A DNA stretch of 64,000 nt from Candidatus Aminicenantota bacterium (GTDB lineage Bacteria; Acidobacteriota; Aminicenantia; UBA2199). A program made the translations under genes and the position numbers. Shown piece after piece: positions 32,983 to 64,000 of this stretch. Position 1 is the stretch's first letter; every line of letters starts with the position of its first letter. The DNA is taken from positions 4,638,727 to 4,702,726 of the forward strand of contig CP070627.1 in the NCBI GenBank assembly GCA_020355945.1, in the 5' to 3' direction. The notes beneath the pieces were generated by a model. It saw only the letters and a list, made by a program, of their open reading frames with translations, did no database searches and was not told the DNA's origin.

Positions 32983-33004
32983 TAATAAATCGCGTCCCTA
33001 CACC

Positions 33005-33787: not shown

Positions 33788-33829
33788 CGATTTCTTCACC
33801 TGCTTAAAAACTTAAAAAATCTAATATCT

Positions 33830-39334: not shown

Positions 39335-42300
39335 TTAATTTCTTATTTTTTTTCTCATTTGCAGTCTTTTGTTTCGATCTCTTTCTCCTCGTTCCAACGC
39401 CTCAGTCCGGTCATTTTTTACAGGAGTATCCTCTTCTCCTTCAGGTTGTGAAAAATACCGGGCCAGGGAACGGATGGTGGGATATTTAAACATCGATACC
39501 ACGGAAATATCTTTCTCACATATTTCTTTCAACCGGCTGTTCACTTTAATAATATCCAGTGAATTACCTCCCAGGTCAAAAAAGTTTTCGTTCATTCCTA
39601 CTTTTTCTAATTTTAGAATATCTTTCCAGATATTGGCGATCAATTTCTCGATTTCATTAGCGGGCGGCGCATAAGCGGTTTCCTGGTTTACAAGACTGCT
39701 TCTAATTCCCGGGAGAGCCTTTAAGTCGACTTTACCGTGCTTTGTCAGCGGTATCTCTTCCAATGGTATAAAATATGAAGGGATCATATAATCCGGTAAT
39801 TTCTTTTTTAAAAAATCCCTCAATTCACTGATCTTCAGGATTTCTTCGTCTCCTGGTGTTTTATCAATTAAATAATCGCTCTTTTCCGCGTTCACCCTAT
39901 CATCGCTGAACAATTTCCGATAAAAGGAATTATGTTTATAAACGCTTTCGTAATAAGGTAAATTATAATCAAACTCGAGATTGTCGTCCTGCTGCCGTTT
40001 CAGGATGCCTTTGATTCTATAATCCGGGGAGATGCCATTTTTACTGGTGATACGGATACAATTTGCACTTATAATATCTCCTTTTGAAACCTCAATCCCT
40101 GGATAAAATACGGGGATAAACACGGGTAACCAACTGTACCTCCTGGCTAATGTATCGATAATTTCTCCTTCAATGGTATGTAAATTCAGCCATAAAATGA
40201 AACCGTCTATTTTCGATTTCTCATTAATGATCAAATTCACATTTTGGTTACTTTCCAATTCAATGGTTTCTAAAAGATTTAACTCTTCAAAATTTTCAGC
40301 AGTTGACCTGACATGGGTTTTGGGGAAATTTTCAATGCAAATCCTTAAGTCAAATGGTTGGCCGAATTTTTTGAAGACTTTCTCGGGATAAATGCCGGAA
40401 ATTTCAGAAAATTCAGGGTTTTCATACAAACCTTCCGGGAGGGAAACCGCTGCTATTTTGGTTATACATTTCCCGGGAATGACTACCCCATCTTCCTTTA
40501 GAAACCTCCTGGCGTTATTATGAATATAAATTGCCCCTTCTGCACTTCCAATTGTCCCGATTTGATTGGATAGACAGACATCGACTTTTTCCGGTAATTC
40601 AACTTTTGTGGAATCTCCATGAATCACGACAATTTTTTCTTCCCAGCCAAGTTTTTTTACCGTTTCTTTTGCTTTTTCAACGTACTCTTCAAGAATTTCA
40701 ATCGCATATATTTTCTTTGCCCCGGCTTCCACACAAAACCTTGACAGGATGGCATCCGGGCCAGTGCCGATTTCTACGACCGTTTTATCCTTTGCTAACT
40801 GTTTGATTGCATATATGAAACTCTTATTCCTCAAATAATCACTACTCATTGCATTATAAATCAGATCATCCCATATAAAATAATCACCCACCGATGGCCA
40901 TATTTGGGGACGTTTTTTAGAATCAGCAACATAGTACGCACATAAATCCATCCTGTCTTCCTTCCATTTCCCGGCAATGACGACTGTTTCTTTGATTTTA
41001 TGGTGTTTTCGCAACAGATTTTCTATTTCTCCCAATTCGATACGGAATCCCCTTATTTTTACCTGGTGGTCGATTCGTCCTAAAAATTCGATGTTACCAT
41101 CCGGCAGCCACCGGGCCAAATCACCGGTTTTGTAGATTTTTTTAGAAAAATAGGACTTATAGGACCGATAGGACCTATATAAGATTGGGAGGAATTTTTC
41201 TGCGGTTAATTCGGGCCTGTTTAAATATCCCCGGGCAACTCCTTCTCCACCGATATACATCTCTCCTACTACTCCTAAGGGGACCAATTTCATACCTTTT
41301 CCCAACAAATATACCCGGGTATTACCGATGGGCCTACCTATCGATAATATCGGTATCTTCTCATCCATCTGTTTTACTTTTAATATGATCGAGGTTACTG
41401 TGGTTTCGGTGGGACCATAGGCATTATAAAAATCACAATGTTCAATCCATCTTTTAGCTAATGATGCGGGACAAATGTCGCCTCCTGAGATTACCCGTTT
41501 TAAATGATAATTATTCAATGGCATTATATTATTCAAGAACGAAGGCACTGCATTAATATGGGTAACCTGTTGATTGGCTGTATATTCATTAAATTTATCG
41601 ACCTCCAGCAGGGTATTTTTATCGATTAAGACTGATGCCGCTCCGCTGGAAAGCGCTGTAAATATCTGCTCCACAGAGGCATCAAAACAAAAGGAGGAAA
41701 ATTGAAGGATTCGATCTGACTCTTTGATATTATAATATTTATCCTGGTTACAAATCAAATTCACCACCGAACCATGCCGGGTGAGTACTCCTTTGGGCTT
41801 CCCGCTGGAACCTGAAGTGAAAATAACGTATGATATATCCCCCGGGCGATTGGTGTGGGATAAATTTGTAACATGACCTTCTTTAATATCTTCGGGGAAA
41901 GAATCCATCATTAAAATTTCCCTTTTTCTTTTACCGTGTCTTATTTTTCCAGGCTTAAAGACAATTCCCGGTATTTCTCCGAGGGTATTTTCATCCGGCA
42001 GGGTGTTGTTATTCTCGATCATTTTTTCCAGTATCCGGCTCAGGGTGATTTCACCTTCTCCCAATACCGCAAGGTCGATATCAGGATCCCGGAGCAGGGT
42101 TTCATAACTGCTGGTGGCATAAGGACCTCCTGCGATAATGGGAACATCTATTCCCCACTGTCGTATAAGGTTCACTGTTTTATGGAAGAAATTTTTGTAA
42201 AAAGTCAATGTCCGAATCCCGATCACATGGGGTTTGAATTCCATTACCTGTTGTTTTAACCCGGTGTAATTATCGAAATCAATCCTGGATTTAGCTATCC

Positions 42301-45300
42301 GTCCGTTGATGCGATTACCAAAGTGTCGATTCAAAAAAGTCATAAGGTACATCAACCCGAGGGGCGGCTCCACCACGTTATAGAGTATTTTCTCATGATC
42401 GCTGAAGAATTGGGATAAATCCAGGAGCAAAATCCTTAACGCATCACCTGAAGGCTGGTGTGCAGGGAAACATCCGGCTAATTTCTTGTTCAAGTGAGGG
42501 ACAGATGCTGCCTGCTCATCCACGAATCCCTGTGCTCCCAATTCAACTTCCGTTATTCCTGCCAATTGCAATAGGTCTGAAAAGCTCTTAATGTCCTCAT
42601 TCAAATAGCTGTCATATTTTTGCACCAACTCATCTTCTGTTAAAACCTTCATTTGATAAGGTAATACATGGAGCAATCTTTCCTTTTTTAAGAAATATTC
42701 ATCGAGGAATTCAGCCTGGTATTTTATTGTAAAACTTTTGTCAAAAGGTAATGTTTCCGGTAGTTCATGCCAGGCCAGGTCTTCCGACCTGGAAATCGCT
42801 TCACTGGAAATACCATTTTGAATGGCTAATTCTGACATCTCTGTATGGGGATAGATTCTCAAAATAAAAACATAAGGGAAATGCACCCATTTCAATGATT
42901 TTATAAAATCCAGTGTCATTTGGGCTTCTTCTTCGGTTTCAGTGGGAAAGCCGTGCATGGTAAAAAGTTCCAATATAACATGGGGATGTTTCCTGGCGAT
43001 ATACTCGATATTTTTACGAAGGTTTTGCAGGTTCAAGTTTTTCTTAATCAGGGTTTGTAATCGCGGTGAAGCAGTTTCTAGGGCCAGGGCTATGTTCACC
43101 GTACCGGCTTGAACCATGAGGTCTATATACTCCTCGGTCAAGATATCCCCCCGTATTCCATTGGGAAAAAAGAAGTTCACATCTAACTGGTTTTGAATAA
43201 CCAATTCAAAGAACCGTTTACTATTTTCAATATCCAGGTTAAAGATATCGTCTATGAATACAAACCGTTTGATACCCATTTGATAGCAGAGCATTACTTC
43301 GGCAAAAATGTTCTCAGCGGAACGTACGATATGTTTCCTGGACCAAATTTTAAAGCAGTATATACAATTATATGGACAACCTCGAGTGGCCTGTAATGCC
43401 ACAGAATTTTTCACCATTGCCTGGCCAATATATCGGTTGTACTTTTCATAATCTACCAGGGAACGATTGGGATGTGGTAAATCGTCGATATTATCGATTC
43501 TTTGCCGCGGTTTGGTTCGACAGGATTCTATCTCGGGTAAATGGCAGGAGTGCAGCCGCGTATACGAACTCTCCTGGACAAGATCGCTTTGGGTTAATAA
43601 GAAAAATGCGCCGGAATCTTCCAGCATACTTTGAATACGGTTTAAGGGAGAATCCTGGTGGATTGGCATATAAGCTCCCCCGGCTTTTAATATGCCTAAT
43701 ATTCCTGTAATCATATCGACGGAACGTTCCAGCATGATGCCTACAATGCTGTCCGCTTTGACTCCTTTTTCCCTTAACCAATAGGCCAATTGGTTGGATT
43801 TTTTATTCAATTCCCGGTAAGATAATTGAAGGGTATGCCGGGAGTGGGGATAAGAACGCAAATCATTTGTCCTTGCGGTTAAACCAGGACCCACCACGGC
43901 AATATTGTCCGGCCTTTGTTCTACCTGGTCTTCAAACAATTGATGGAGTGTTTTATCTTGCGGATAAGATGCAAACGTATCATTAAATTCATCCAATAAT
44001 TTTTCCCGTTCTTCTCCTGGTATGATTTCTATATCCACTATTTTCTCACCGGGATTTTCGATTACCGATGATATGATATTCTTGAAATATCGAATAAATC
44101 GTAATATGGTTTCTTCTTTAAAGAGTTTTGTGCAGTATGTAAACGAGAAATACAATTTCTCTCCTATTTCAACACCGGTGAGGGTTATATCGAATTTCGA
44201 TATCTTACTTTTAAAAGGATAGGCTCCGATAAGCAGGTTTTTAACCTTTTTTGCGGGAGAATATCCAGGGTCTGCGGAAATATTTTTTAGCTCAAAAGCT
44301 GCATCAAATATGGGATTACGACTCATATCTCTTTTCACTACCACTTTTTCTATGATATCTTCAAATTGATAGTCCTGGTTTTCAAACACTTCCAATGTCC
44401 TCGCTTTTAGTTCCTGCAGGAATCCGCTGGATGTTTTCTCCCCTGCCGGGTAATTTCGCATCGCCAGGGTATTGACAAACATGCCGACTATTTTCTCTAA
44501 GTCCGCATGTCTGCGGGATGCGATGGGGGACCCCACTACAATATCTTCCTGGCTGCTTAGTTTGGCGAGGAATATATTATATATGGCTAATATTACCATG
44601 AATAACGTAGCCCCGTTGGTGTGGGCTATTTCATTTAACAATCCTGTCTCTTCAACATTTAATTCAAACGGGACAGTATTTCCCTCATAGTTTTGAACCG
44701 GTGGTCTTGTATAATCGGTGGGCATATATAATACAGGAACCTGTTCTTCAAATTCCTTTAACCAGAATTCTTCCTGTTTCCTGGTATTTTTTTTGACCGG
44801 TTCACTTTGCTGCCACTCCGAATAATCTTTATAATGAAGCCGCAGCGGAAAGAGTGCCTCTCCTGCATATAAGGCTGCAAAATCACTATTCAATACTTTC
44901 TCCGATTGACCGTCTCTTACAATATGATGCATATCCACATAAAAGATATACTTCATCTCCCCTGCCTTTATTAAACCGGCTCGCACCAGGGGCGCCCGGG
45001 ACAAATCAAAGGGATATACAAAATTTTTAATGATTTCTTCACTCTTTTGACTGCCTGATTGTGCATCATAATACCGGATGTCGAATTCTACTGTTTTATG
45101 TACCCGTTGGACAGGCTCTCCGTTTACCATTTCAAATGATGTCCTCAAACTTTCATGGCGGGACAACAGGTCTTTATATGCTTTATTAATCTTATTTAAA
45201 TCGATATCGCCTTCTATCGATAATACAAGCGGCAAATTATAAGATACATTATCAGTTGTCATTTGTTGTAATAAATATAATCTCCTCTGGGTTGAAGATA

Positions 45301-47905
45301 GGGCATAATACTCTTTCTCTTCTATCGGTTCGATGGAAGCGTATTTATCCTCTCTCGATGCGGTAATAATTTCCGAAAGTCCCTTTACCGTGGGAGATTT
45401 AAATAATTCAAGGAGCGGTACCTGGGTATTACATTCTTTGTGAATTTTCGCTATCAATGTGGTGGCTTTTAACGAATCACCACCCAATTCAAAAAAGTTT
45501 GCCTCTATGCTGATGTTTTCTTTCGCTGTGCCCAACACCCGACTCCATAAATCCACCAACTTCTCCTGCTGCTCATCCTGGGGAGCCTTGTAATTGGTGT
45601 CTTTACCTCGTTTCGGTTCCGGCAATTCCCGATGGTCTACTTTTCCATTTGGAGTAACGGGAATTTTATTTAACGCCATAAAAACCGAAGGTATCATATA
45701 TAATGGCAATTTTGGGGATAGATATTCCCGCAGCCCGGCAGCATCAATTGGGGTTGAACAAACATAATACGCACAAAGATACTTCCCTCCGTTGTCATCT
45801 CCCCTGGCAATGACGACAGCATTTTTAATACATTGGTGTTTAAGTAATTGATTTTCGATCTCTTCCAACTCGATTCGAAAGCCTCGTATCTTTACCTGCG
45901 AATCGATCCTGCCCAAAAACTCGATATATCCGTCCGCTGTCCATCTGGCCAGGTCACCGGTGCGATAAAACCGGTCATTGGCAGTTCTTACAAATTTCTC
46001 TGCGGTTAATTCCGTGCGGTTTAGATACCCCGCAGCTAAACCGGTGCCGGATATACATAACTCACCGGGCACACCTATGGGCACAAGTTTTAAATTTTCA
46101 TCCGATATGTAGATATCCGTATTATCGATGGGTTTACCTATGGTGGCGGTTTGTTTGTATTCTTCAAATTGGTTAAAATCGATAAACCGGGCAATCGACC
46201 CGATGGTAGTTTCTGTGGGGCCGTAATGATTCATTATTTGAAAATGATCGCAGACCAGGTGCGCCCGCTCCACATCCTGGGTATTGATGGGTTCACCTCC
46301 TAACACCACCAGCCTTAATGATGCACATGTGTCCCTGGAAAAACCAGGGGAATTAACAATTACTGAAAATAGGGAAGGTGTTAATTTTATATAAGTAATT
46401 GCATTTTCTTTTATGTAATCCAGTAATTTATCGGGAACGAGAAAAATTTCTTTAGGAATTAAGTGCAGTTCCCCTCCTGCTAAAATCGACGGGTATATGC
46501 AGGTGTACCCCAGGTCAAAGGCAAGGGAGGATATCAACATTGCTTTATCTTTCCCTGTTAAACCGGTTTTTTTCAAAAACCAGGAAGCATAATTTACCAG
46601 GTTTTCATTTTTAACCAGGACACCTTTGGGTCTCCCGGAGGTACCGGAGGTATAAATCACATAAACAATCTCCCCGGGTATACTTTTTCTCTTCAAGTTT
46701 GAACCATCTCCATTATATATCGTTTCATCATGGATATTTATCAATTCACAGCGGGTGGCCAGTTGCTCATGGAAATGATGTGAGGTTAATATCAAATGAG
46801 CCTGGCTGTCTTTTAGCATAAAATTGATGCGCTCCGCCGGGAAATCCGGATCGATGGGCAAATAGGCGCCGCCAGCTTTTAATACCGACAATATCGCTAT
46901 TATGGTTTGAATGGAAGGCAGTGCCGATACCGCAGCAATTGAACCCGCTTTTATACCCTTCTCCCCCAGTATTCTTGCCAATTGATTGGCTTTTTCATTT
47001 AATTCCCTGTAGCTCAAGGGGGCCGGGTAGCCATCCCCTGCTGCCGCAATATTTCCTCCTCTTCTTTCTACTTGTTCTTCAAACAACTCATGGATTGTCC
47101 TGTCTTTGGGAAAATTCGTTTTGGTTTGATTGAAAATCGTCAGCAGCCGGTGCCTTTCTTGGTCCGATAATATCTCGATTTCAGACACCTGGAGATTTAA
47201 GTTATTTAAAATTATTTCCAATAAATAAACGAAATGCCCCGCTATTCTCTTTATCGTATCTTTCTTATATAGGTGGAAGTTGTACTCTATAGAACCTTCG
47301 ATATACTCCCCTGTTCTTAAGAAAGAAAACAAGATATAAGGATTTAAATGCTTGATATATTTCTTATAATGGATATTTTCAAGCGAAATCCCGGTTTCAA
47401 ATAAAGATCCATCCCTTGAACATGGAAGTTCCAGGTCATTGACAAACCGTTCAACCGGGAAATTTAAATGTTCATTGGCTTCAAAAATCGTTTTTTTGCA
47501 TAGTAATATTAATTCTTTCACAGGTTCTTTACCGGTCAATTGAAGTCTTATGGCTAGAGCAGTATTGATAAATTCACCATCGATTTCCTGTTTATAAATA
47601 GGAGCGGCAACGATAATATCTTTATTCCCGGTATATTTGTTTAGCAAAATAGTTAAACAGGTCAATAGGACAATGTATAGATTATTATCGGACCCTTTGG
47701 CCAGTTGAATCAACCTGGCTGATAAATTACCCGGGATTCTAAAATGAAAATCATCTATATTCCTGGTTAAGCCATCCGGGGCAATATGATCATAGGGGAA
47801 GTATGTCTTCACCAACTGGCCGGCCAATTTATTCATCCAGTAGTTTTTTTCATTTTCCACATGTTTACTTTGAAGCATTAATCCTTTTGAAATATTTGTC
47901 GTCAT
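39335..47905 (-). CDS. NRPS-3: half-C, A(Asp?), PCP, C, A with B12-radical SAM and methyltransferase inserts, PCP
   Basis: The protein has 2856 residues. Residues 1-260 are only the C-terminal half of a condensation domain, without HHxxxDG. The first A domain (265-780) has code D-L-T-K-V-L-H-I-G-K, close to the Asp code DLTKVGHIGK. PCP1 has Ser811. A full C domain carries His993-His994 (HHIVRDG). The second A domain (from about 1330) is interrupted twice. Between A2 (GGAYMPI) and A3 (IFTSGSSGKPKG) lies a radical SAM/B12 unit, about residues 1440-2010. Between A8 and A10 lies a methyltransferase, about 2325-2680. Its code reads D-A-E-N-V-S-A-V-T-K, which I cannot assign. PCP2 has Ser2782. It passes the peptide to the KS of the PKS. 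Confidence 0.92.
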   Translation of the reverse strand: MTTNISKGLMLQSKHVENEKNYWMNKLAGQLVKTYFPYDHIAPDGLTRNIDDFHFRIPGNLSARLIQLAKGSDNNLYIVLLTCLTILLNKYTGNKDIIVAAPIYKQEIDGEFINTALAIRLQLTGKEPVKELILLCKKTIFEANEHLNFPVERFVNDLELPCSRDGSLFETGISLENIHYKKYIKHLNPYILFSFLRTGEYIEGSIEYNFHLYKKDTIKRIAGHFVYLLEIILNNLNLQVSEIEILSDQERHRLLTIFNQTKTNFPKDRTIHELFEEQVERRGGNIAAAGDGYPAPLSYRELNEKANQLARILGEKGIKAGSIAAVSALPSIQTIIAILSVLKAGGAYLPIDPDFPAERINFMLKDSQAHLILTSHHFHEQLATRCELINIHDETIYNGDGSNLKRKSIPGEIVYVIYTSGTSGRPKGVLVKNENLVNYASWFLKKTGLTGKDKAMLISSLAFDLGYTCIYPSILAGGELHLIPKEIFLVPDKLLDYIKENAITYIKLTPSLFSVIVNSPGFSRDTCASLRLVVLGGEPINTQDVERAHLVCDHFQIMNHYGPTETTIGSIARFIDFNQFEEYKQTATIGKPIDNTDIYISDENLKLVPIGVPGELCISGTGLAAGYLNRTELTAEKFVRTANDRFYRTGDLARWTADGYIEFLGRIDSQVKIRGFRIELEEIENQLLKHQCIKNAVVIARGDDNGGKYLCAYYVCSTPIDAAGLREYLSPKLPLYMIPSVFMALNKIPVTPNGKVDHRELPEPKRGKDTNYKAPQDEQQEKLVDLWSRVLGTAKENISIEANFFELGGDSLKATTLIAKIHKECNTQVPLLELFKSPTVKGLSEIITASREDKYASIEPIEEKEYYALSSTQRRLYLLQQMTTDNVSYNLPLVLSIEGDIDLNKINKAYKDLLSRHESLRTSFEMVNGEPVQRVHKTVEFDIRYYDAQSGSQKSEEIIKNFVYPFDLSRAPLVRAGLIKAGEMKYIFYVDMHHIVRDGQSEKVLNSDFAALYAGEALFPLRLHYKDYSEWQQSEPVKKNTRKQEEFWLKEFEEQVPVLYMPTDYTRPPVQNYEGNTVPFELNVEETGLLNEIAHTNGATLFMVILAIYNIFLAKLSSQEDIVVGSPIASRRHADLEKIVGMFVNTLAMRNYPAGEKTSSGFLQELKARTLEVFENQDYQFEDIIEKVVVKRDMSRNPIFDAAFELKNISADPGYSPAKKVKNLLIGAYPFKSKISKFDITLTGVEIGEKLYFSFTYCTKLFKEETILRFIRYFKNIISSVIENPGEKIVDIEIIPGEEREKLLDEFNDTFASYPQDKTLHQLFEDQVEQRPDNIAVVGPGLTARTNDLRSYPHSRHTLQLSYRELNKKSNQLAYWLREKGVKADSIVGIMLERSVDMITGILGILKAGGAYMPIHQDSPLNRIQSMLEDSGAFFLLTQSDLVQESSYTRLHSCHLPEIESCRTKPRQRIDNIDDLPHPNRSLVDYEKYNRYIGQAMVKNSVALQATRGCPYNCIYCFKIWSRKHIVRSAENIFAEVMLCYQMGIKRFVFIDDIFNLDIENSKRFFELVIQNQLDVNFFFPNGIRGDILTEEYIDLMVQAGTVNIALALETASPRLQTLIKKNLNLQNLRKNIEYIARKHPHVILELFTMHGFPTETEEEAQMTLDFIKSLKWVHFPYVFILRIYPHTEMSELAIQNGISSEAISRSEDLAWHELPETLPFDKSFTIKYQAEFLDEYFLKKERLLHVLPYQMKVLTEDELVQKYDSYLNEDIKSFSDLLQLAGITEVELGAQGFVDEQAASVPHLNKKLAGCFPAHQPSGDALRILLLDLSQFFSDHEKILYNVVEPPLGLMYLMTFLNRHFGNRINGRIAKSRIDFDNYTGLKQQVMEFKPHVIGIRTLTFYKNFFHKTVNLIRQWGIDVPIIAGGPYATSSYETLLRDPDIDLAVLGEGEITLSRILEKMIENNNTLPDENTLGEIPGIVFKPGKIRHGKRKREILMMDSFPEDIKEGHVTNLSHTNRPGDISYVIFTSGSSGKPKGVLTRHGSVVNLICNQDKYYNIKESDRILQFSSFCFDASVEQIFTALSSGAASVLIDKNTLLEVDKFNEYTANQQVTHINAVPSFLNNIMPLNNYHLKRVISGGDICPASLAKRWIEHCDFYNAYGPTETTVTSIILKVKQMDEKIPILSIGRPIGNTRVYLLGKGMKLVPLGVVGEMYIGGEGVARGYLNRPELTAEKFLPILYRSYRSYKSYFSKKIYKTGDLARWLPDGNIEFLGRIDHQVKIRGFRIELGEIENLLRKHHKIKETVVIAGKWKEDRMDLCAYYVADSKKRPQIWPSVGDYFIWDDLIYNAMSSDYLRNKSFIYAIKQLAKDKTVVEIGTGPDAILSRFCVEAGAKKIYAIEILEEYVEKAKETVKKLGWEEKIVVIHGDSTKVELPEKVDVCLSNQIGTIGSAEGAIYIHNNARRFLKEDGVVIPGKCITKIAAVSLPEGLYENPEFSEISGIYPEKVFKKFGQPFDLRICIENFPKTHVRSTAENFEELNLLETIELESNQNVNLIINEKSKIDGFILWLNLHTIEGEIIDTLARRYSWLPVFIPVFYPGIEVSKGDIISANCIRITSKNGISPDYRIKGILKRQQDDNLEFDYNLPYYESVYKHNSFYRKLFSDDRVNAEKSDYLIDKTPGDEEILKISELRDFLKKKLPDYMIPSYFIPLEEIPLTKHGKVDLKALPGIRSSLVNQETAYAPPANEIEKLIANIWKDILKLEKVGMNENFFDLGGNSLDIIKVNSRLKEICEKDISVVSMFKYPTIRSLARYFSQPEGEEDTPVKNDRTEALERGERDRNKRLQMRKKIRN
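39868..40933 (-). other. PRMT-like methyltransferase insert in the second A domain of NRPS-3
   Basis: The domain begins near RPQIWPSVGDYFIWDD. It contains the SAM-binding motif VVEIGTGPDAILSRFC, an acidic strand end (YAIEILEEY) and LKEDGVVIPGK, a layout like protein-arginine-type methyltransferases. It sits between A8 (GFRIELGEIENLL) and A10 (KHGKVDLKALP). That is the site where N-, O- or C-methyltransferases are known to interrupt A domains. Whether it methylates nitrogen or oxygen of the bound residue is not decidable here. Confidence 0.8.
41151..41181. repeat. Short tandem repeat inside NRPS-3
   Basis: Units of TAGGACTTAT/AGGACCGATAGGACCTATAT encode the Tyr-Arg-Ser-Tyr-rich stretch YRSYRSYKSYF. 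It comes just before the A7 motif (YKTGDL) of the second A domain. Two other A domains in the window have repeat-derived sequence at the same place. Confidence 0.65.
41880..43580 (-). other. Inserted B12-radical SAM unit in NRPS-3, domains in reversed order
   Basis: After the A2 motif comes the linker DDLPHPNRSLVDYEKY, normally found just before radical SAM domains. A radical SAM domain with Cys1510, Cys1514 and Cys1517 (RGCPYNCIYC) follows, then an alpha-helical stretch. Only then comes the cobalamin-binding domain (LRILLLDLSQF, VIGIRTLTFY, PIIAGGPYAT, LGEGEITL). The A domain resumes at A3. The unit is about 570 residues and closely resembles the one in NRPS-1. Confidence 0.88.
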
Positions 47906-47952: not shown

Positions 47953-49668
47953 TTAAAAATCAAAGTCCACATCTTCGACCTGGTTATTCCTGGCAGCATA
48001 GATTCGGATTACATTTTCATTTTCCCCCAAATACTTTTCCGGGTTATTATTCAGATCCATAATCGCCGGGACTGCATTGGGTTGGATTTTTTGCCAGCGC
48101 CTGTCTGCGGTCATGATATCGCGGATCGAATAAGGATTGGGGATGCCCAGTTTTTTACATTTTTCTTTAAACCTGCATTGCCGGTCATAGATGATTTCCC
48201 TGGGAGGGTAGGCATTTAACGAATAAGATTGAGTGATAAGCATATCCGTGGCTTCCCCCGGGTATAGGAGGCGATTGCCTTTTTGTTTTAGCCATTCTTC
48301 GGCATTTACCTGGCCGGTATGGAAATAGCGAAACGGGTCGCATTCGGCTTCAAATATGCTGTCCTGTAGTTCCTCCAGTAAATCCAGGGTTTGTTGAAAG
48401 TCCTCTTCGGTTTCGCCGGGGTGCCCGGCAATCCAATAGGTGGTGGTTTTAATCCCGGCGGATGCCAGGCTGCGCAGTCCATCCTTAATTTGTTGAAGGG
48501 TTATTTTTTTATCGATCATGTCCAATACCTTTTGAGAACCGCTCTCAATCCCTAACCTGGCCCGGTAAAAACCCCCTCTTCTCCATAATAATGTTTGATC
48601 CGGATCGCATACCTGCCTGTCGATTTTGATATAGACATCCCAATAAACTTTTAAATTTCGTTTGATTATTTCTTGTGAAAGGGGTGTCACCAGCGGGTTG
48701 ATCATACAATCGGTCAGTACAAATAACCGCCTGCCGTACTTACGGATCAATTCTTCAAATTCGTCGGTTACTTTTTGGGCACTTTTCCTATTATATCGCT
48801 TCCAGTATACGGTTTCCGCGCAAAAGCTGCATCTATATATACATCCCCGGGAGGTAAACCCGGGCAAGAGCGGGTATGAGGATAAATTAAAATCCGAATA
48901 ATCAGGCAGGGGTACGGTGTTAAGGTCCAACAACCGGTCATCGATATCTTTCAGGGTATATACTTTTTTATCATCCGTTAATTCACCGCGAAGATATTTC
49001 AAAAATATGGTTTCACTCTCCCCGATAAATATCTTATCGATAAATGAGGCTTTTTCTAAGAAATAATTAAAATTCGGCGTACCGGGATAAAGCTCCTGGG
49101 AAAAGATCGTTCCTCCCATCACAATTTTGATTCCCGGGAACTTCTCTTTGATTAGCCTGGCTGCAAAATAAGAAGCAGCCAGCGTGCCTTTATACACGGA
49201 AAGTCCTAACACCGCTGGTTTTTCCCGGTTGAATAATTCAATCAAATATCTTGCCAATTGGGAGAAAAACATTCCCACTATGCCGTTTAACTCCCGGACT
49301 TTTTCATCATCCACCTGGACAAAAAAATTCTGTGACACCAAAATTTTTACCAATGCGATATACTTTTGCTCGTCTTTATAATTGACATGTGCCATAAAGT
49401 GATTGTACAGGACATCCAGTCCGACATTAAAAAAATGACCTTGTTTCTTCTCGGGAATATACCCCTGCAGTGTATCGAAATAGAGATAACATAATTCCCT
49501 GATTTCCATATTTGACATCACATCCACGGTTTTCACACGATAGCCGTTTTCCTCCAGGTACCCCTTAAGACACGAGATTCCCATGGGGGGAATTAAGGGG
49601 GTAAGGAAAGGTAATGTCATTAAAAGAATTTTTTCCGTGTGGTGTTTGGTGTTATTTATTGCTGCCAT
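47953..49668 (-). CDS. Stand-alone B12-binding radical SAM enzyme with F-D-F tail
   Basis: The protein has 571 residues. The N-terminus (ILLMTLPFLTPLIPPMGISCLKGYL) starts a cobalamin-binding domain that has a long helical insertion and ends with IVMGGTIFSQ and IGESETIF. The radical SAM domain has Cys276, Cys280 and Cys283 (RGCIYRCSFC), followed by a C-terminal region with DRQCRFKEKCKKLGIPNPYS. It is a paralog of the protein at 56919-58616. The last residues, VEDVDFDF, match the tails of the neighbouring NRPSs. It lies between NRPS-2 and NRPS-3 and probably modifies a PCP-bound residue in trans. Confidence 0.87.
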   Translation of the reverse strand: MAAINNTKHHTEKILLMTLPFLTPLIPPMGISCLKGYLEENGYRVKTVDVMSNMEIRELCYLYFDTLQGYIPEKKQGHFFNVGLDVLYNHFMAHVNYKDEQKYIALVKILVSQNFFVQVDDEKVRELNGIVGMFFSQLARYLIELFNREKPAVLGLSVYKGTLAASYFAARLIKEKFPGIKIVMGGTIFSQELYPGTPNFNYFLEKASFIDKIFIGESETIFLKYLRGELTDDKKVYTLKDIDDRLLDLNTVPLPDYSDFNLSSYPLLPGFTSRGCIYRCSFCAETVYWKRYNRKSAQKVTDEFEELIRKYGRRLFVLTDCMINPLVTPLSQEIIKRNLKVYWDVYIKIDRQVCDPDQTLLWRRGGFYRARLGIESGSQKVLDMIDKKITLQQIKDGLRSLASAGIKTTTYWIAGHPGETEEDFQQTLDLLEELQDSIFEAECDPFRYFHTGQVNAEEWLKQKGNRLLYPGEATDMLITQSYSLNAYPPREIIYDRQCRFKEKCKKLGIPNPYSIRDIMTADRRWQKIQPNAVPAIMDLNNNPEKYLGENENVIRIYAARNNQVEDVDFDF

Positions 49669-49706: not shown

Positions 49707-52700
49707 TTAAAAATCGAAAGCCACATCATTTTCTTTAGTGACATGACTTCCATGCAGTAAACTACTGGAAAGTATAATTTCTCCCGGTTTGATACCCGGG
49801 TTGTTGGTCACCTGGTCGATTATTTCGATGTAGTGTTCTCCCAATTTTCTCATGGTTTCCTCTTTAAATAAAGCCGTAGAATACCGGGTTAGAATATGAA
49901 TATCTTCATTGACTTCCCTGGCAAAGAACGTCAGGCCAAATCGTTCGATGATCGTGTTAGATGGATAATGGCTTAATTTCAAATCATCCCGATGTGCTGT
50001 AAAAACCCTATCGGTTTCCGAGGTATCAATATTTTGCACTGCCAGGACCACATTGAATAATGGATTTTTATCGGATTTTCGGTCGATTCCCAGTTTTCTT
50101 ACCAGTTCATCGAATTGATAATCCTGGTTCTCAAAGGCTTCCATTATATTTTGCTTCACTTCTTTAAGAAATTCCACAAACGTTTTTCTTCCGTTGGGCC
50201 TGTTTCTTAATGACAGCATATTGATAAACATACCGATTATATTCTGCAAATCGATATGGTTTCTACCTGTGATGGGAGACCCGATTATGATGTCCTCCTG
50301 TCCGGTATAGAGGAATAACAATATATTAAGCGCCGCGGCCATAAATATGAATAAAGTTGTTCCTGTTTGATTGTTCAAATCTTTCAATCTTTGAGATATC
50401 TGCCGGGGAATTAAAAAATGTATCGACTTTCCTTCATAATTACTTCTTTCAGGCATCTCATAATCGGTGGGGAGATTTAATGTGGGGATTTCTCCCTTGA
50501 ATTTTTGTATCCAATATTCTTCCTGCCTTTCTAATAATTCTTTTTTGCTGGCAGTGTTATACCACTCTGAAAAATCTTTATATTGTAGTTTTATAGGTGG
50601 TAATTGTTCTTTTGCATACACCAGTATAAAATCCCTGTTCAATATTGTATTGGATACTCCATCGGTCATGATGTGATGCATATCTACGACTAATATATAT
50701 TCTTTTTGTTTTTGTTTTATCAATCCGACACGCATCATCGGAGCTTTTGCCAGGTCAAAGGGCCGGATGAAATTTTTGATTATAGACTCAGCGGTATGAA
50801 CGGATTGAAGGGAAGTATCATAATACTCTATTTCAAAATCCATTTCATCATGAATTCTCTGCACCGGTTCCTCTTCAACCATAATAAAGGAAGTTCTCAA
50901 ACTATCATGCCGTTTTATTAATCCGTTAAAGGCAGCGGAAAGTCTATCTTTATCGATATCACCTTCCAGGATAAAGGCCAAAGGCATGTTATATGCGATG
51001 GAACCGGGATTTATTTGCTGGATAATATACAATCGTTGTTGTGCCGCTGATAAAGCATAGTACTCCTTTGCCTCCACCGGTTCTATGGCGATAAATTTAT
51101 CTTTTATCGCTCCGGTTATATATTTAGCCATCCCCCTGATGGTAGGAGCTTTAAATATTTCTACCAGCGGGAGTTTTATATTTAATTCTTTATGTATCCT
51201 GGCAGCCATTATTGCTGCACTTAACGAATGACCTCCCCGTTGGAAAAAATTATCATCGATTCCCGGAGCCTCTTTTAATGGGGCGATGCTCACCAGCCCG
51301 GACCATATCTCTGCCAATTTTTCTTCGATTTGGTCACGAGGGGCGGCATACCCATCCACCATTTTCAACCGGGGTTCCGGCAGTAACTTCCGGTTTATTT
51401 TCCCGTTGGGGGTCAAGGGAATTCGTTCCATTTCTACAAAATACGAAGGAATCATATATTCCGGCAATTTCCCGGGGAGTAATTCTTTTAATTGCTGTAA
51501 TTGGGCCTCTTTATCCGTCACTTTACCCGGTTTCCAGACAATATAGGCACAAAGATAATTATCACCGGAGGAAAACTGGCGGGGAATGACGGCTGCTTCT
51601 TTTATTGCTTCATGTTTTAACAGGTGGTTCTCTATTTCCCCGGTCTCTATACGGTAGCCCCTGATTTTGACCTGGCTGTCGATCCGCCCCAGGAACTGGA
51701 GGGCTCCGGGTTCAATCCATCTGGCCATATCACCGGTGCGGTAGATATAGGACATATGGGACGTATATGACATATGCAGGGTGTCACTTGCTGTCTTTTT
51801 TATAAATTTTTCCGCTGTCAATTGCGGCCGGTTCAAATAACCCCTGCCCACACTGCTGCCGCAAACACACAACTCTCCTGAAATCCCAACAGGAACCACC
51901 ATTAAACCTTTATCCAGGATGTAAATCCTCATATTATGGATGGGATGACCAATCACCGGTCGCTTTTTATACTGTTCAAACCGTTCAAAATCGATTTTCC
52001 GGGCTGCACAACCGATAGTGGCTTCTGTGGGTCCGTAATGATTCAGGATTTCAATACCGGGTAGTGCGGCATGGAATTTTTCCACATCTTTTATTTTGAT
52101 CTCCTCTCCGCCCAACACAACCAGCCGCAGCGAACCGCGGTTCATCGTGGTAAAGTCCGAACCTTCAACAATCGTACTGAAAAGTGACGGCGTCATCTTG
52201 AGATAGGTGATGCGGTGACGGATAATATAACCGATCAAATTTTCCAGTGATAAGTACATGTCACGAGGGATTACATGTAGTTGGCATCCGCTTATAATAG
52301 AGGGGTAAACAACAGTATAGCCCAGGTCGAAACAAAAAGAGGAGGTCAATACACTTCGATCATTCCCGGTTAGATTGACTTTGTTCCTGAACCAATGGCT
52401 GTAATTGACTAAATTTTTATTTTCGATCAATGTGCCTTTGGGTTTCCCGGTGGTGCCGGAGGTGTAAATGACATAAACCAGGTTATCGGGGGTAACCCGG
52501 TTTATGGTTGAGGTTAAGGTTGAGGTATTTAACCGATCTTTTATTTCACTGCCGGTAACCAGGATTTTGGCGGCGCTGTCTTCTAACATGTAATTGATTC
52601 TTTCCTGCGGATATTCCGGGTCTATGGGTAAATAGGCTCCCCCGGCCTTCAATATCCCCAGTACCCCGACGATCATCTCCGGCGAATGTTCAATCATAAT

Positions 52701-58642: not shown

Positions 58643-61600
58643 TTAAAATCCGAAGGATTCCGCTTCATTTCCGGGGAATACGGATTCTACTCTAATTAAA
58701 GCATGAGAAATTGTGATGTCCTTCAACATGACACCATCATCTTCACTAATCTTTTCCAGTATCTCCGCCAGGTGTTGGAGCATTTTTTCGGCATTGGCGG
58801 ACTTATATAATGATACCGAATAATTGAGATTAAAATGAATGGAATCTTCTCCTTCCCATGCATCAAGCAATAAATCGAATTTCAAACCTGAAAATTCATA
58901 ATCATACCGTTGGACATGAAAATCTTCATTTTCACTATCTCCGGGTTCCGGGGTACCCACTGCCAAAACAGCATCGAACAAAGGATGCCGCGAAAGGTCC
59001 TTCGGTATATCCAGTTTAGCAACCAATTCCGTGAATTGGTAATCCTGGTTTTCATAAGCATTAAAAGCATTGGTTTTTACCTCTTTAAGAAAATCCTGGA
59101 ACCGAAGGTTCTCTTTCGGGAAATTTCTCATGGGCAGCATATTGGCAAATAAACCGATTATATTGTATAAATCCGGGTGAGTTCTTCCTGAAATCGGCGA
59201 TCCCACCACAATGTCATCCTGCCCGGAATACTTCGATAACAAAATGGTGTATACGGCCAACATCAAAATATAAAGCGTAGTCCCTGATTCACGCAAATAT
59301 TTTTTTATCTTATTGGTAAGCTCTATATCCAATTTTAAATGAATACGGCTGCCCTGGAAATTTTTCTCTCCAGGTCTGGGAAAATCAGTGGCCATTGTCA
59401 GCAAAGGTATTTCATCGCTAAACCTCTTCAACCAGTACGCCTCCTGGCTGGCCAATTCTCCCGATTGAATCAACCGAAAATGCCATTGGGAATAGCTGCT
59501 GTAATGAATGCGTAAAGGAGGCAATTCATTGTGTCTATTTGAATATAATTTCATGAAGTCACTGATCATTACATGATCGGAGAAGGCGTCTGAAATAACA
59601 TGATGGAGGTCAAAAAATAAGAGATGATTTCCATCGCTGATCTTTATTAATTTTACCCGCATCAGTGGGGCCATACTGAGGTCAAAGGGTTTTATAAAAC
59701 TCATAACCGCCTTTCTAACTTCTTCTACATCCATCTCATAATACTCAACCTCAACCATGACATCATGATGCACTACCTGGACAGGTTGATCATCTATCAT
59801 TTCAAAGGACATCCGTAGAATCTCATGCCTGTTTATAAGTCCCACTAAAGCTTCTTCAAATTTTTCTCGTTGAATATCTCCCTTCAACATAAATGCCCTG
59901 GGCATGTTGTAACTGATACTTTCAGGGTCGAATTTCTGGATAAAGTATAAACCCTTTTGCTGAAAAGACATCGGATAGTATTCTTTTTCTTCTACGGGTT
60001 CTATTGCTGTATATATAGTTATTCCTGTAGATTCAATATATTTCGACATACTTTTTATGGTGGGATTTTTAAATACTTCTGTCAAGTGCATTTTCACATT
60101 TAATTCCCTGTAAATCTTTGATGTGAGCAGCATGGCTTTTAAAGAATGCCCTCCCAACTGGAAAAAGATGTCATGGATACTGATTTTATCTTTTCCGATT
60201 CCGAGAACTTCCGCCCAGATCCCGGCCAGTTTTTTTTCTATCTTATTCCTGGGGGCATCATAACTTTCAACCACTTTCCACCCCGGTTTCGGTAATGATT
60301 TCCGGTCTATTTTCCCATTCGGGGTTAACGGGATTTTTTCCAGCGGCTCAAAATACGAAGGTATCATATAATCCGGTAATTCCATGGACAAATAGTCTCG
60401 CAATTCCGAGATCACACATTCGCTGTGGGAAACGATATAGGCACATAAATATTTATCCCCTTTCTCTTCCTCGCCAACCAGCACCACTGTCTCTTTTATT
60501 CCCGGATGATTCAACAGCCGGTTCTCTATCTCTCCCAATTCGATCCGATATCCCCTGATTTTGAATTGGTTATCGATCCTTCCCAAAAAGAGTATATTTC
60601 CATCCGGGAGCCACTTAGCCAGGTCCCCGGTCTTGTAGATTTTTGGCCTCCGGCGGCCAGGGGGAGCGCTTTTTGAAAAAACTGCCCCCCCTGAACCCCC
60701 CCGCAAAAACTTTTTATTATTTTTTTCGTGTAATTCGTGGGCTTCTCCAGTGCCGTCTTCCTCGACCTTAACCTCTATCTCCATAAATCTTTCTGCAGTT
60801 AACTCCGAATTGTTTAAATACCCCCTGGCAACCCCGGAACCAGCAATACCCAATTCCCCCGCCACACCCACCGGCTGCAATTTATTCTTCTTATCAAGGA
60901 TATATACCCGGTGATTGAGCATCGGTTTACCGATGGGAATATCTCCCGGTAGATTTATATTTTCTGTGGTTATTTTATACGAGGTGGCATCGACACAGCA
61001 TTCTGTGGGTCCATAAACATTGGTAATGATTGGACTATGCGGCTCAACGGCCTTTAAAAAATCTGCCGCCTGTTGGCGAGGCAAGGCTTCACCCCCGATA
61101 ATAAAGTGTTTAACAGTGAAGCCCCCTTTCAATCCTGTCTTCTCTTGATTATGCTTCATTTCAATACTTTCCAGCATCAGTTGAAGATGGATGGGGGTCC
61201 CGTCTGAAATGTCGATTTGATGTTTTTTATAAAATTGAAGCAAAAGGTCACCATCAATCCTGGTTTCTTCCGGTACAATATACAAACTATGCCCCAGTAC
61301 CAGTGCTGCGAAAACCTGCTTGACGGATGCGTCAAATACAACCGGAGATACCAGGGCCGCCTTCCGGGGGTCGTTATAACTTTTATAAATTCTCTCATTT
61401 AACCCGGTGACAAGATTGGTGACATTTCGATGCTCCAGCACCACCCCTTTGGGTCTGCCGGTGGAACCGGAAGTAAAAATGGTATAGGCCGGGTCTGCCG
61501 GCTGATTAACAGGCTCCGGGTTGACTCTGGCTTCCGATGGTAACCCCGGGTTTAATACATCCGACATAAGTAACTCCCTGGCAAAAGCGGTTCCCGGGCC

Positions 61601-64000
61601 TTTTTCTCCTGCTGCCAGGGCAAGGCCTTTGATTTTCTTCAAAATCTTTTCTCCCGGCAATTTCCCTTCATTTTCAAGCATCCCCTTGATCAGTTCACTG
61701 AGGGTAATTTCTCCTTCTCCCATCACCACCAGGTCAATATTGACATCCTGTAGAATCGCTTTGTAATCGCTTGTGGCATAAGGACCACCAGCAATAATCG
61801 GCACTTCTATTCCCCAATGCCGGATCATGGCTGCTGTCCTGTGAAAAAATCTCCTGTAATAGGTTAAAGTGCGGATTCCAATGACGTCAGGTGAAAATTC
61901 CTCCACCAGGACTTTTAATTCGTTATAATTATCAAAATCGATCCTGGATTTGGCGATTTTTCCGGTTATTCGGTCCCCAAACTGTTTGTCCAGGTAGGTC
62001 ATAATATACATCAGTCCCAAAGGCGCCTCCACCACATCGTAGAGCATATTACTGCTGTGAGCACTGAAAAATTGGGACAGGTCCAGCAGTAAAATCCTTA
62101 GTGCGTTGGCTGCGGTAGATTTTGGCTTAAAATGTTCTTTCAGCTTCCTATTGAAACCAGGAACCATGACGCTTTTCTCTTCCAGGAAGTCTTCCCTTCC
62201 CAGTTCCTTCCTGGAGATCCCGGTAAATTCCAATAGATCATCAAAGCATTGAATATCAACTGGCAGATAGCTGTTGTATTTTTGTACCAGTTCATCTTCT
62301 GATAACACCTTTAACTGGAAAGGAAGCACGTGGACCAGCCGTTCCTTTGACAAAAAATACTCATCGAGGAATTCTGACTGGTACTTTATAGTAAAACTTT
62401 TATCAAAGGGTAAGGTGTCGGGGAGTTCGTGATAGGCAAGGTCGGCGGAAGTGGAAATGGCTTCGGGGGAAATCCCGTTCTCAAGGGCCAGTTTCTCCAT
62501 TTCCGTATTTTGATAAATTTTTAAAATATTGACGTAGGGGAAATGAATCCATTTGATTTTCTTGATAAATTCCAGTGTCATCCGTGCTTCTGTTTCGGTT
62601 TCGGTGGGAAAGCCGTGCATGGTATTCAGTTCTAAAATAACCTGGGGATATTTTTTACTGATATACGCCATATTTTCGAAAAATTTTTCCAGGTTTAAAT
62701 TTTTGCCAATCAATTTTTGCAACCGGGACGAAGCGGTCTCCAGGGCCATTGCCATTCGTAGGGTCCCGGCTTTTACCATCAGGTCGATATAATCCCTGGT
62801 TAAAATATCACCCCTCAGACATAAAGAAAGTTGAAGGTCTAATCCATGTCCAATGATCAATTCAAAAAACCTGGTGGTGTTTTTTACATTCAAATTGAAA
62901 ACATCATCCAGGAAAACAAACCGGCGGACGCCCATATTGTAATAAAGCTGGACTTCTGAAAACATATTCTCGGCTGAACGGGTTTCCTGTTTATTGGGCC
63001 AGATTTTATGGCAATAGGCACAGTGAAATGGGCAGCCGCGGGTTCCCAGCATTGAAATGCTGTGTTTGATCAGTGACTGGCCAATATACCGGTGGTATTT
63101 CTCATAATTAACCAATGAACGGTCAGGGATGGGTAAACGGTCCAGCTCGGTTATGATGGGCCTGGGCTCGGTGAGATACACGTTCTGCCAGTTTAATTGG
63201 ATACCTTGTAAATCGAAAAATGAGTGATGTTCAATGATGGTGCTTTTTGTTAATAAAAGGAAGATGTTACAATCATTGAGTATCCCCAGGATACTGGCTT
63301 TGGGTGCTGCGGTATCGATGGGTACGTATGAACCGCCTGCTTTTAATATGCCAAAGATCCCGATTATCATATCCGGGGAACGGTCCATCATCAGGCCCAC
63401 CATAGCACCGGGTTTGACCCGTTTTTCCCGCAGGATAAAGGCCAGTTGGTTGGACTTTTTATTTAATTCCCTATAAGTCAAGGCATAGAGGGGGGCGCCT
63501 GGTGCGGGGTGTGTGTTCTGGTGTGCTTTGTGCCCGGTATCTTGCGCCCGGCCAACCACGGCAATATTGTCCGGGGTCCTCTCCACCTGGTCTTCAAACA
63601 ATTGATGAAGGGTTTTATCTTTGGGATAATATCCCCGGGTGTCATTAAACTCATACAATATTCTCTCTTTTTCTTCCTGGGTCAATATCTCGATGTCCGA
63701 TATCTTTTTTCCCGGGTTTTCCATCACCGACGATATGATCTTGTTGAAATATTGAATAAATCTTAAAATGGTTTCTTCTTTAAATAGCCTGGTGCAATAT
63801 TCGAATGAAAGATACAGGCTCTCTCCCCTTTCAATCACAGTCAGTGTCAGATCAAATTTCGATGTCCCGGGTTCAAAACGATAGGGTTTGATTTTCAAAT
63901 GCTCTCTTTCTTTTGTCGGTTCGGGCTCATCGAAAATATCCTGGAAAACAAAAATCACATCAAATAAGGGGTTTCGACTCAAATCCCTTTTCACTACTAT
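58643..64000 (-). CDS. NRPS-1 (5' part beyond window): C, A(Glu) with B12-radical SAM insert, PCP, terminal C
   Basis: The visible part has about 1785 residues; the ORF is still open at the right edge and the first residues seen (KRDLSRNPLFDV) are inside a condensation domain. The A domain is interrupted between A2 (GGSYVPID) and A3 (IFTSGSTGRPKG) by a B12-radical SAM unit. Its code reads D-A-K-D-I-G-V-V-D-K, one conservative change from the Glu code DAKDLGVVDK. The PCP serine codon is at 60143-60145 (GGHSLKAML). The terminal C domain reads HHVISDA, with Ala for the last Gly. The protein ends NEAESFGF. An in-frame dispersed repeat lies just before A7. Confidence 0.9.
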   Translation of the reverse strand: MVVKRDLSRNPLFDVIFVFQDIFDEPEPTKEREHLKIKPYRFEPGTSKFDLTLTVIERGESLYLSFEYCTRLFKEETILRFIQYFNKIISSVMENPGKKISDIEILTQEEKERILYEFNDTRGYYPKDKTLHQLFEDQVERTPDNIAVVGRAQDTGHKAHQNTHPAPGAPLYALTYRELNKKSNQLAFILREKRVKPGAMVGLMMDRSPDMIIGIFGILKAGGSYVPIDTAAPKASILGILNDCNIFLLLTKSTIIEHHSFFDLQGIQLNWQNVYLTEPRPIITELDRLPIPDRSLVNYEKYHRYIGQSLIKHSISMLGTRGCPFHCAYCHKIWPNKQETRSAENMFSEVQLYYNMGVRRFVFLDDVFNLNVKNTTRFFELIIGHGLDLQLSLCLRGDILTRDYIDLMVKAGTLRMAMALETASSRLQKLIGKNLNLEKFFENMAYISKKYPQVILELNTMHGFPTETETEARMTLEFIKKIKWIHFPYVNILKIYQNTEMEKLALENGISPEAISTSADLAYHELPDTLPFDKSFTIKYQSEFLDEYFLSKERLVHVLPFQLKVLSEDELVQKYNSYLPVDIQCFDDLLEFTGISRKELGREDFLEEKSVMVPGFNRKLKEHFKPKSTAANALRILLLDLSQFFSAHSSNMLYDVVEAPLGLMYIMTYLDKQFGDRITGKIAKSRIDFDNYNELKVLVEEFSPDVIGIRTLTYYRRFFHRTAAMIRHWGIEVPIIAGGPYATSDYKAILQDVNIDLVVMGEGEITLSELIKGMLENEGKLPGEKILKKIKGLALAAGEKGPGTAFARELLMSDVLNPGLPSEARVNPEPVNQPADPAYTIFTSGSTGRPKGVVLEHRNVTNLVTGLNERIYKSYNDPRKAALVSPVVFDASVKQVFAALVLGHSLYIVPEETRIDGDLLLQFYKKHQIDISDGTPIHLQLMLESIEMKHNQEKTGLKGGFTVKHFIIGGEALPRQQAADFLKAVEPHSPIITNVYGPTECCVDATSYKITTENINLPGDIPIGKPMLNHRVYILDKKNKLQPVGVAGELGIAGSGVARGYLNNSELTAERFMEIEVKVEEDGTGEAHELHEKNNKKFLRGGSGGAVFSKSAPPGRRRPKIYKTGDLAKWLPDGNILFLGRIDNQFKIRGYRIELGEIENRLLNHPGIKETVVLVGEEEKGDKYLCAYIVSHSECVISELRDYLSMELPDYMIPSYFEPLEKIPLTPNGKIDRKSLPKPGWKVVESYDAPRNKIEKKLAGIWAEVLGIGKDKISIHDIFFQLGGHSLKAMLLTSKIYRELNVKMHLTEVFKNPTIKSMSKYIESTGITIYTAIEPVEEKEYYPMSFQQKGLYFIQKFDPESISYNMPRAFMLKGDIQREKFEEALVGLINRHEILRMSFEMIDDQPVQVVHHDVMVEVEYYEMDVEEVRKAVMSFIKPFDLSMAPLMRVKLIKISDGNHLLFFDLHHVISDAFSDHVMISDFMKLYSNRHNELPPLRIHYSSYSQWHFRLIQSGELASQEAYWLKRFSDEIPLLTMATDFPRPGEKNFQGSRIHLKLDIELTNKIKKYLRESGTTLYILMLAVYTILLSKYSGQDDIVVGSPISGRTHPDLYNIIGLFANMLPMRNFPKENLRFQDFLKEVKTNAFNAYENQDYQFTELVAKLDIPKDLSRHPLFDAVLAVGTPEPGDSENEDFHVQRYDYEFSGLKFDLLLDAWEGEDSIHFNLNYSVSLYKSANAEKMLQHLAEILEKISEDDGVMLKDITISHALIRVESVFPGNEAESFGF
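60645..60720. repeat. Dispersed hairpin repeat inserted in frame in NRPS-1
   Basis: The 76-bp stretch from GGCCTCCGGCGGCCAG to CAAAAACTTTTTATTAT is almost the same as 30552-30620. On the coding strand it is read through without a stop as KKFLRGGSGGAVFSKSAPPG. It falls between the A6-A7 region and the A7 motif (YKTGDL). Confidence 0.85.
61550..63200 (-). other. Inserted B12-radical SAM unit in the Glu A domain of NRPS-1, domains in reversed order
   Basis: The order along the protein is linker LDRLPIPDRSLVNYEKY, radical SAM domain (RGCPFHCAYC, cysteine codons at 63011-63034), helical stretch, and cobalamin-binding domain (LRILLLDLSQF, VIGIRTLTYY, PIIAGGPYAT, MGEGEITL). The A domain then resumes at A3. 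It is clearly homologous to the unit in NRPS-3 across its whole length. Confidence 0.88.

What the first reader, a model, noticed from the sequence alone, without database searches (positions are those of the whole stretch)
41880..43580. Circularly permuted B12-radical SAM enzyme embedded in an NRPS adenylation domain
Stand-alone enzymes in this window (for example 18466-19662) have B12 domain, linker (PIPRFDLL), radical SAM. In both NRPS inserts the order is linker (LPxPxRSL), radical SAM, B12 domain. The cut lies in the natural linker between the two domains. Such a permutation would bring the ends of the unit together, which is what an insertion into a loop of an A domain needs. I know of A domains interrupted by methyltransferases or oxygenases, but not by a B12-radical SAM unit.
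Basis: partly seen in the sequence, partly recalled or inferred. Interest (0 to 1): 0.95.

Follow-up and report, generated by a model that had tools for sequence, protein, structure and literature searches.

The report
Radical methylase inside an NRPS domain
A bacterial peptide-building enzyme carries, inside the domain that picks one of its amino acids, a whole unit of the vitamin-B12 radical enzyme family whose two halves are in swapped order; over a hundred relatives share this layout, and the unit is predicted to add a methyl group to the picked amino acid, likely on a carbon that ordinary methyl-transferring enzymes cannot touch.

The parts
39335..47905 (-). NRPS, 2856 aa: half-C - A - T - C - A(interrupted twice) - T
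43535..43936 (-). N-terminal part of the host A domain (motifs A1-A2), residues 1324-1457
   Evidence: HMM AN; GGAYMPI at 1409
43457..43495 (-). linker DNIDDLPHPNRSL at the start of the insert, the cut point of the permutation
   Evidence: in the classical outgroup ORFs the rSAM profile, which begins here, starts soon after the B12 domain
42524..43486 (-). radical SAM domain of the insert, residues 1474-1794; CxxxCxxC at 43355-43378
   Evidence: Pfam PF04055; HMM; fold match to AprD4, TsrM, OxsB
41945..42448 (-). B12-binding domain of the insert, residues 1820-1987
   Evidence: Pfam PF02310 above cut-off; HMM; five-stranded Rossmann pattern in the models
40820..41839 (-). host A domain resumes: A3 to A8, residues 2023-2362; specificity code D-A-E-N-I-G-A-V-T
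39947..40912 (-). second interruption: S-adenosylmethionine methyltransferase-like stretch between A8 and the A10 end (about residues 2332-2653)
   Evidence: Pfam Methyltransf_31, Methyltransf_25 and PRMT5, all at or just below their cut-offs, residues 2372-2485; 16 of 151 embedded A domains show such an extra stretch
39731..39946 (-). end of the host A domain (A10, residues 2654-2725)
39455..39646 (-). carrier (T) domain of the module, residues 2754-2817, proposed place of the substrate
58643..63994 (-). second NRPS, runs off the window: part-C - A[rSAM-B12] - T - C; code D-A-K-D-I-G-V-V-D (Glu-like)
61559..63154 (-). second insert: linker ITELDRLPIPDRSL, rSAM (Pfam 62564-63043), B12 (Pfam 61691-62026)

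Best explanation
A circularly permuted unit of the B12-dependent radical-SAM family (radical SAM domain first, B12 domain second) is inserted between motifs A2 and A3 of an NRPS adenylation domain, and it is predicted to C-methylate, likely at the beta carbon, the amino acid that this A domain selects. Shown from sequence: the domain order, the insertion site, the intact three-cysteine motif, the family size, and free-standing permuted relatives that branch first. Predicted: the fold of the A domain and of the insert. Inferred steps: the A domain adenylates the amino acid and loads it on the neighbouring carrier domain; cob(I)alamin in the insert takes a methyl from one S-adenosylmethionine; a second is split by the [4Fe-4S] cluster to a deoxyadenosyl radical, which takes a hydrogen from the tethered amino acid; methylcobalamin gives its methyl to the carbon radical; the C domain then passes the residue on. 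In the window protein a second, ordinary methyltransferase at A8-A9 would modify the same residue, possibly on nitrogen.
Against: No product or assay is known. The closest solved relative of the rSAM half, AprD4, is a diol dehydratase, not a methylase. No NCBIfam model, methylase or other, reaches its cut-off on the two free-standing relatives scanned (for the window protein only 25 of 133 rows were shown, none of them rSAM). Cobalamin binding is inferred from Pfam and predicted fold. The code/insert link could be plain co-transfer of neighbouring DNA. The missing Gly/Ser/Cys codes were noticed before they were tested. Ten of 113 C domains after embedded modules lie on the D-accepting side of the tree. 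Beta carbon is a guess from the list of substrates.
Confidence: 0.62

Rival explanations
1. The insert is a radical epimerase that turns the loaded L amino acid into D.
For: B12-radical-SAM epimerases exist (recalled); the substrate range is broad, as an alpha-carbon reaction would allow; 10 of 113 C domains after embedded modules lie on the side of the tree that holds all 12 C domains following E domains (2 inside that clade, 8 in its sister).
Against: 96 of 113 C domains after embedded modules group with 73 of 77 C domains after ordinary modules, apart from the 12 that follow E domains; 10 embedded modules have their own E domain by motif, and 7 of the 113 are E-like by tree position.
Confidence: 0.08
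2. The insert does another radical reaction (oxidation, dehydration, ring or cross-link formation) and not methylation.
For: Closest PDB sequence is the AprD4 dehydratase; B12-radical-SAM enzymes also do ring contraction, ring formation and thioether formation (PMC13331322, section 3); no methylase family model is matched above its cut-off by the free-standing relatives.
Against: A common reaction across Thr, Ile, Leu, Val, Pro, Glu and Asn is most easily a C-H methylation (inference); the B12 domain scores above Pfam's cut-off in both window inserts; methylations are the most common reactions of this subclass (PMC11659888, start of abstract in the listing).
Confidence: 0.22
3. The insert works in trans: the A domain is only an anchor, and the unit modifies other residues, or the finished peptide, as free-standing DscE does.
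For: Free-standing relatives with conserved tails exist; units occur next to or in incomplete A-like stretches; DscE methylates a finished nonribosomal peptide (PMC12858407, section 10).
Against: Inserts follow the specificity half and its code; 115 of 119 listed proteins have the unit flanked by both parts of the host A domain.
Confidence: 0.15
4. The order is an assembly or annotation artefact, or a decayed hitch-hiker.
For: Many records are metagenome assemblies.
Against: 115 of 119 listed proteins from many records share it; Abyssisolibacter fermentans, a named species not marked as a MAG, has it in a 2953-aa protein (P0055); cysteines intact in 169/170.
Confidence: 0.01

Closest known systems
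Interrupted adenylation domains (TioN, MarQ at a2-a3; TioS, KtzH at a8-a9)
   Different: Inserts named in the two reviews are methyltransferase, oxidase, monooxygenase or reductase domains (PMC11355689, PMC8949500, passages); here a two-domain unit of a metalloenzyme family that uses cobalamin and a [4Fe-4S] cluster.
Class 1 cobalamin-dependent radical SAM enzymes (TsrM, TokK, OxsB, CysS, PoyC)
   Same: Homologous domains; rSAM half matches the folds of TsrM, OxsB and CysS; five-stranded Rossmann plus hairpin in the model.
   Different: Domain order is reversed by circular permutation; inserted in another protein.
Mmp10 (class 2, C-terminal cobalamin domain)
   Same: rSAM first, cobalamin domain second (PMC13331322, PMC8828468, passages).
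   Different: Mmp10 has a four-stranded cobalamin domain, grouped with DUF512 enzymes, and is called the only characterised case with that order; here the domain is predicted to be of the five-stranded class 1 type and matches Pfam B12-binding.
DscE, trans-acting B12-rSAM methylase of the discodermin NRPS cluster
   Same: Radical C-methylation in a nonribosomal pathway (PMC12858407, section 10).
   Different: Separate enzyme acting on the finished peptide.

Membership tests
Interrupted adenylation domain | catalytic domain between core motifs of one A domain | tested here: met
   A2 before, A3 after, 115 of 119 listed homologues
Interrupted adenylation domain | A domain keeps its fold and substrate-binding aspartate | tested here: met
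Interrupted adenylation domain | both activities shown on the loaded carrier | not testable with these tools
   needs biochemistry
Class 1 cobalamin-dependent radical SAM enzyme | CxxxCxxC motif in a TIM-type barrel | tested here: met
   cysteines in 169/170 embedded units; predicted fold matches solved rSAM enzymes
Class 1 cobalamin-dependent radical SAM enzyme | five-stranded Rossmann B12 domain with hairpin | tested here: met
   predicted strands at model residues 502-508, 545-552, 573-577, 602-605, 624-626 and 660-662/675-678; Pfam PF02310; not confirmed by a fold search of this domain alone
Class 1 cobalamin-dependent radical SAM enzyme | B12 domain N-terminal to rSAM domain | tested here: not met
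   order reversed in both window inserts and in 147 of 147 listed close relatives
Class 1 cobalamin-dependent radical SAM enzyme | binds cobalamin | not testable with these tools
   inferred from homology
Class 2 (Mmp10/DUF512) enzyme | rSAM first, cobalamin domain C-terminal | tested here: met
Class 2 (Mmp10/DUF512) enzyme | four-stranded DUF512-like cobalamin domain | tested here: not met
   five-strand pattern and Pfam B12-binding match; no DUF512 match was listed by Pfam for the window protein
NRPS epimerase | downstream C domain of the D-accepting type | tested here: not met
   96 of 113 in the ordinary clade, 10 on the D side, 7 are E-like themselves

The most novel reading that the evidence does not exclude
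Nature has made a plug-in radical C-methylation cassette for NRPS: a class 1 B12-radical-SAM enzyme was circularly permuted, lived as a free enzyme, and was then built into A domains, where insert and substrate-specificity half move as one cassette matched to the amino acid. It amplified to about thirty copies per genome in a large-genome Aminicenantes and would give peptides rich in beta-methylated residues (tert-leucine-like, 3-methyl-Ile, 3-methyl-Glu), one residue per module.
Probability: 0.45. Interest if true: 0.92.

Novelty: new variant of a known kind. Interest (0 to 1): 0.82.

Why it matters
It joins two fields. For radical enzymes, it is a permuted class 1 B12-radical-SAM family; the 2025 review consulted here (passages and section 3) sorts the family by domain order, and a search of its main text for 'permut' found nothing. 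For peptide synthetases, it would be a built-in way to methylate unactivated carbons during chain growth, of which I found no earlier report, with over a hundred natural examples, many predicted substrates and at least one host with a species name. It makes testable whether a loaded amino acid is the substrate, and offers a natural part for making beta-branched peptides.

Tried and rejected
Epimerase role: tested by C-domain tree, rejected as the general rule. Mmp10-type enzyme: rejected by predicted strand number and Pfam family. Permutation as a result of the insertion: rejected, free permuted enzymes branch first; the number of insertions or excisions stays open (14 changes; 11 between embedded and free rows, where 41 of 80 inner branches are weak). 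Single substrate: rejected. In the phylum sample 1 of 297 genomes matched, but at most 4 candidates per genome were scored; in the family 7 of 34. Rows dropped: 15 of 277 modules with unclear flanks; modules with unrecognised codes and near copies, leaving 125 of 151; 68 of 275 C domains (first in their protein, after a post-A unit, other or unclear) were not counted in the comparison, and 23 of the 32 first ones lie on the D-side of the tree. A recount without near copies changed 151 embedded modules to 149 and 14 post-A modules to 12, nothing else of weight. 1185 of 1305 hits, 708 of 828 and 1097 of 1217 are not listed by the tool and were not examined.

Papers: searches. No title or start of abstract in their listings reports a B12-radical-SAM unit in an A domain; PMC9259500, the one paper with both terms, holds them as unrelated items (passages). 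Seen: PMC13331322 passages and section 3; PMC8828468, PMC11355689, PMC8949500, PMC12846815, PMC11285071 passages; PMC12858407 passages and section 10; PMC11659888 only in the listing. A survey of interrupted A domains (Lundy 2020, PMC8341866, cited in PMC11355689) is not held, so prior mention there is not excluded. Specificity codes, their positions in GrsA, the place of B12 domains in TsrM, AprD4 and OxsB, and the existence of B12-radical epimerases are recalled.
Full report
What was checked. The ORF at 39335-47905(-) encodes a 2856-residue NRPS. Pfam places a radical SAM domain (residues 1506-1668) and a B12-binding domain (1846-1958) inside its second A domain, both above Pfam's own cut-offs. 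The N-terminal part of the A domain ends near residue 1457, the linker LPHPNRSL and the rSAM motif CPYNCIYC follow, then the B12 domain to residue 1987, and the A domain resumes with the motif TSGSSG just after residue 2026. ORF 58643-63994(-) repeats this. Six stand-alone B12-rSAM proteins of the window have the usual order, B12 first (one B12 match is below Pfam's cut-off).

The layout is a large family. A search of about 5.8 billion proteins with the insert region gave 828 hits, of which 120 are listed, including the window's own protein. With my own domain profiles, 115 of the other 119 carry at least one A(N)-rSAM-B12-A(C) unit, 8 of them two or more; one more (P0024) begins inside the rSAM domain, and three have only the related layout described below. 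Names include Candidatus Aminicenantes, Acidobacteriota, Ruminiclostridium and Abyssisolibacter fermentans; shorter pieces come from Bacteroidales, Desulfobacula and Deferrimicrobium records. One 10.4-Mb genome has 34 matches and another of 5.7 Mb has 19, partial ones included; in their family 7 of 34 genomes have matches, all of 4.7 Mb or more. The window's contig is given as 9.13 Mb.

The order is a circular permutation. Profiles of the two domains, made from the permuted family, find both domains in 111 ORFs of the 78 outgroup loci; all 111 have B12 before rSAM (20 more ORFs had one domain only). All 120 listed relatives and all 27 new ones listed have rSAM before B12. These lists are ordered by similarity to permuted queries, so they show the family, not its share among all enzymes. 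In the free-standing relative P0220, NCBI's models of classical enzymes match crosswise: their rSAM part to the protein's start, their B12 part to its end. Free-standing permuted proteins start near the linker and end just after the B12 domain, or with a short tail such as FNDDLEDE.

Which came first. A tree of 330 units rooted on 14 classical enzymes puts free-standing permuted enzymes, and one A(N)-rSAM-B12-T protein without the second half of an A domain (P0255), on the deepest branches; all 170 embedded units fall in one clade of 280 that also holds 79 free forms (support 0.82). A quick IQ-TREE run on 83 chosen rows agrees: the permuted family is one clade (SH-aLRT 100) and all 31 embedded units lie in a clade of 59 (SH-aLRT 91) that holds 23 free forms, with 15 free forms outside it. 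So permutation came before insertion. Fitch parsimony needs 14 changes between embedded and other states; gains and losses cannot be told apart.

What it acts on. Nine-position specificity codes were read for 151 embedded and 111 uninterrupted A domains (positions and reference codes recalled). Embedded: Thr-like 39, Ile 25, Glu 9, Val 9, Pro 9, Leu 6, Gln 6, Asn 5, Lys 3, Asp 3, Tyr 1, unassigned 36. Without near copies 149 embedded modules remain; 0 of 149 has a Gly, Ser or Cys code, against 13 of 111 (Fisher p 1e-5, the classes chosen after seeing the data). Asp235, which binds the amino group, is kept in 149 of 149 (98 of 111 in the others). So the insert serves many alpha-amino acids; a beta carbon with hydrogen is common to those named. 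Bottromycin and polytheonamide enzymes of the same superfamily methylate Val, Ile, Phe and Pro residues (PMC11285071, passages).

Inserts and code are linked. Among 125 non-redundant embedded modules, the nearest insert has the same code in 65% (14% when codes are shuffled), against 46% for the A1-A2 part and 45% for a piece near A8, both also above shuffling. Along the module, insert distances correlate with A3 to about A6 (r 0.21-0.31) and not with A1-A2 (-0.06 to 0.08), A8 (-0.04 to -0.09), T (-0.02) or C (0.09). Insert and specificity half thus travel or evolve together. That fits an enzyme that must recognise the chosen amino acid; simple linkage during recombination would give part or all of the same picture.

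Not an epimerase in general. C domains after embedded modules: 96 of 113 lie with 73 of 77 that follow uninterrupted modules; the 12 that follow E domains form another clade, with 2 from embedded modules, and 8 more in its sister; 7 of the 113 fall among the E domains. Ten embedded modules have an E domain by motif.

Related layouts. Five units sit between a complete A domain and T, and seven in a second A-like stretch in which my profile finds no second half. Of the 12 A domains in front of such units, 10 have Cys in place of Asp235. Here the unit is not part of the A domain that loads the carrier, which favours the carrier-bound residue as substrate (inference). Sixteen of 151 embedded A domains have a further stretch of about 300 to 640 residues before T, as in the window protein, where it matches methyltransferase families at or near their cut-offs; a double interruption at a2-a3 and a8-a9 had been engineered (PMC11355689, passages).

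Verdict. The architecture is real, widespread and, as far as the searched open-access papers go, undescribed. It is an interrupted A domain with a new kind of insert, and a class 1 B12-radical-SAM enzyme with permuted order. C-methylation of the loaded amino acid is the best reading (0.62); the carbon and the stage need an experiment.

Noticed in passing
39947-40912 (-): Second interruption of the same A domain, a methyltransferase-like stretch with PRMT5/PrmA-like matches at or below cut-off at A8-A9; 16 of 151 embedded A domains look doubly interrupted.
   Followed up: partly
L001, L127, L139, L140, L144; P0010, P0016, P0019, P0022, P0031, P0038, P0067: rSAM-B12 units placed after a complete A domain or in an incomplete second A-like stretch; 10 of the 12 preceding A domains read CVQ[YF][IV]AHV, with Cys instead of Asp235, so the substrate may lack an alpha-amino group.
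   Followed up: partly
47953-49668 (-), 56919-58616 (-), and C-termini of the NRPS genes at 49707 and 58643: Two NRPS proteins and the two classical B12-rSAM enzymes between NRPS genes end alike (VAFDF, ESFGF, DVDFDF, LVDFDF); 46 of 87 free permuted enzymes share a LEDE/LENE-type end. Possible docking tails.
   Followed up: partly
39335-47905 (-) residues 7-253; 49707-56876 (-) N-terminus: These NRPS proteins begin with only the C-terminal part of a condensation domain, although the NRPS encoded before each ends in a full one.
   Followed up: no
13080-21190 (-), 47953-49668, 56919-58616: Six classical B12-rSAM enzymes plus two embedded units in 64 kb; ORFs 18466-19794 and 19643-21190 overlap, so the first likely starts later.
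   Followed up: no
30619-33799 (-): Pyruvate-formate-lyase-like glycyl radical enzyme and a radical SAM protein, perhaps its activase, directly after the PKS gene.
   Followed up: no
3140-8535 (-), 21213-22049 (-): AMP-ligase, acyl-CoA dehydrogenase, LuxC reductase and a FeeM-type N-acyl amino acid synthase near the NRPS genes.
   Followed up: no
P0034, P0069, P0070, P0085: A further B12 domain lies between the first C-domain piece and the interrupted A domain; in P0034 a radical SAM motif follows it (classical order), so one NRPS can hold both orders.
   Followed up: partly
P0129, P0140, P0149, P0152, P0159, P0167: Proteins of about 720 aa made of the first part of an A domain plus rSAM-B12 and a short tail, without the rest of the A domain.
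   Followed up: partly
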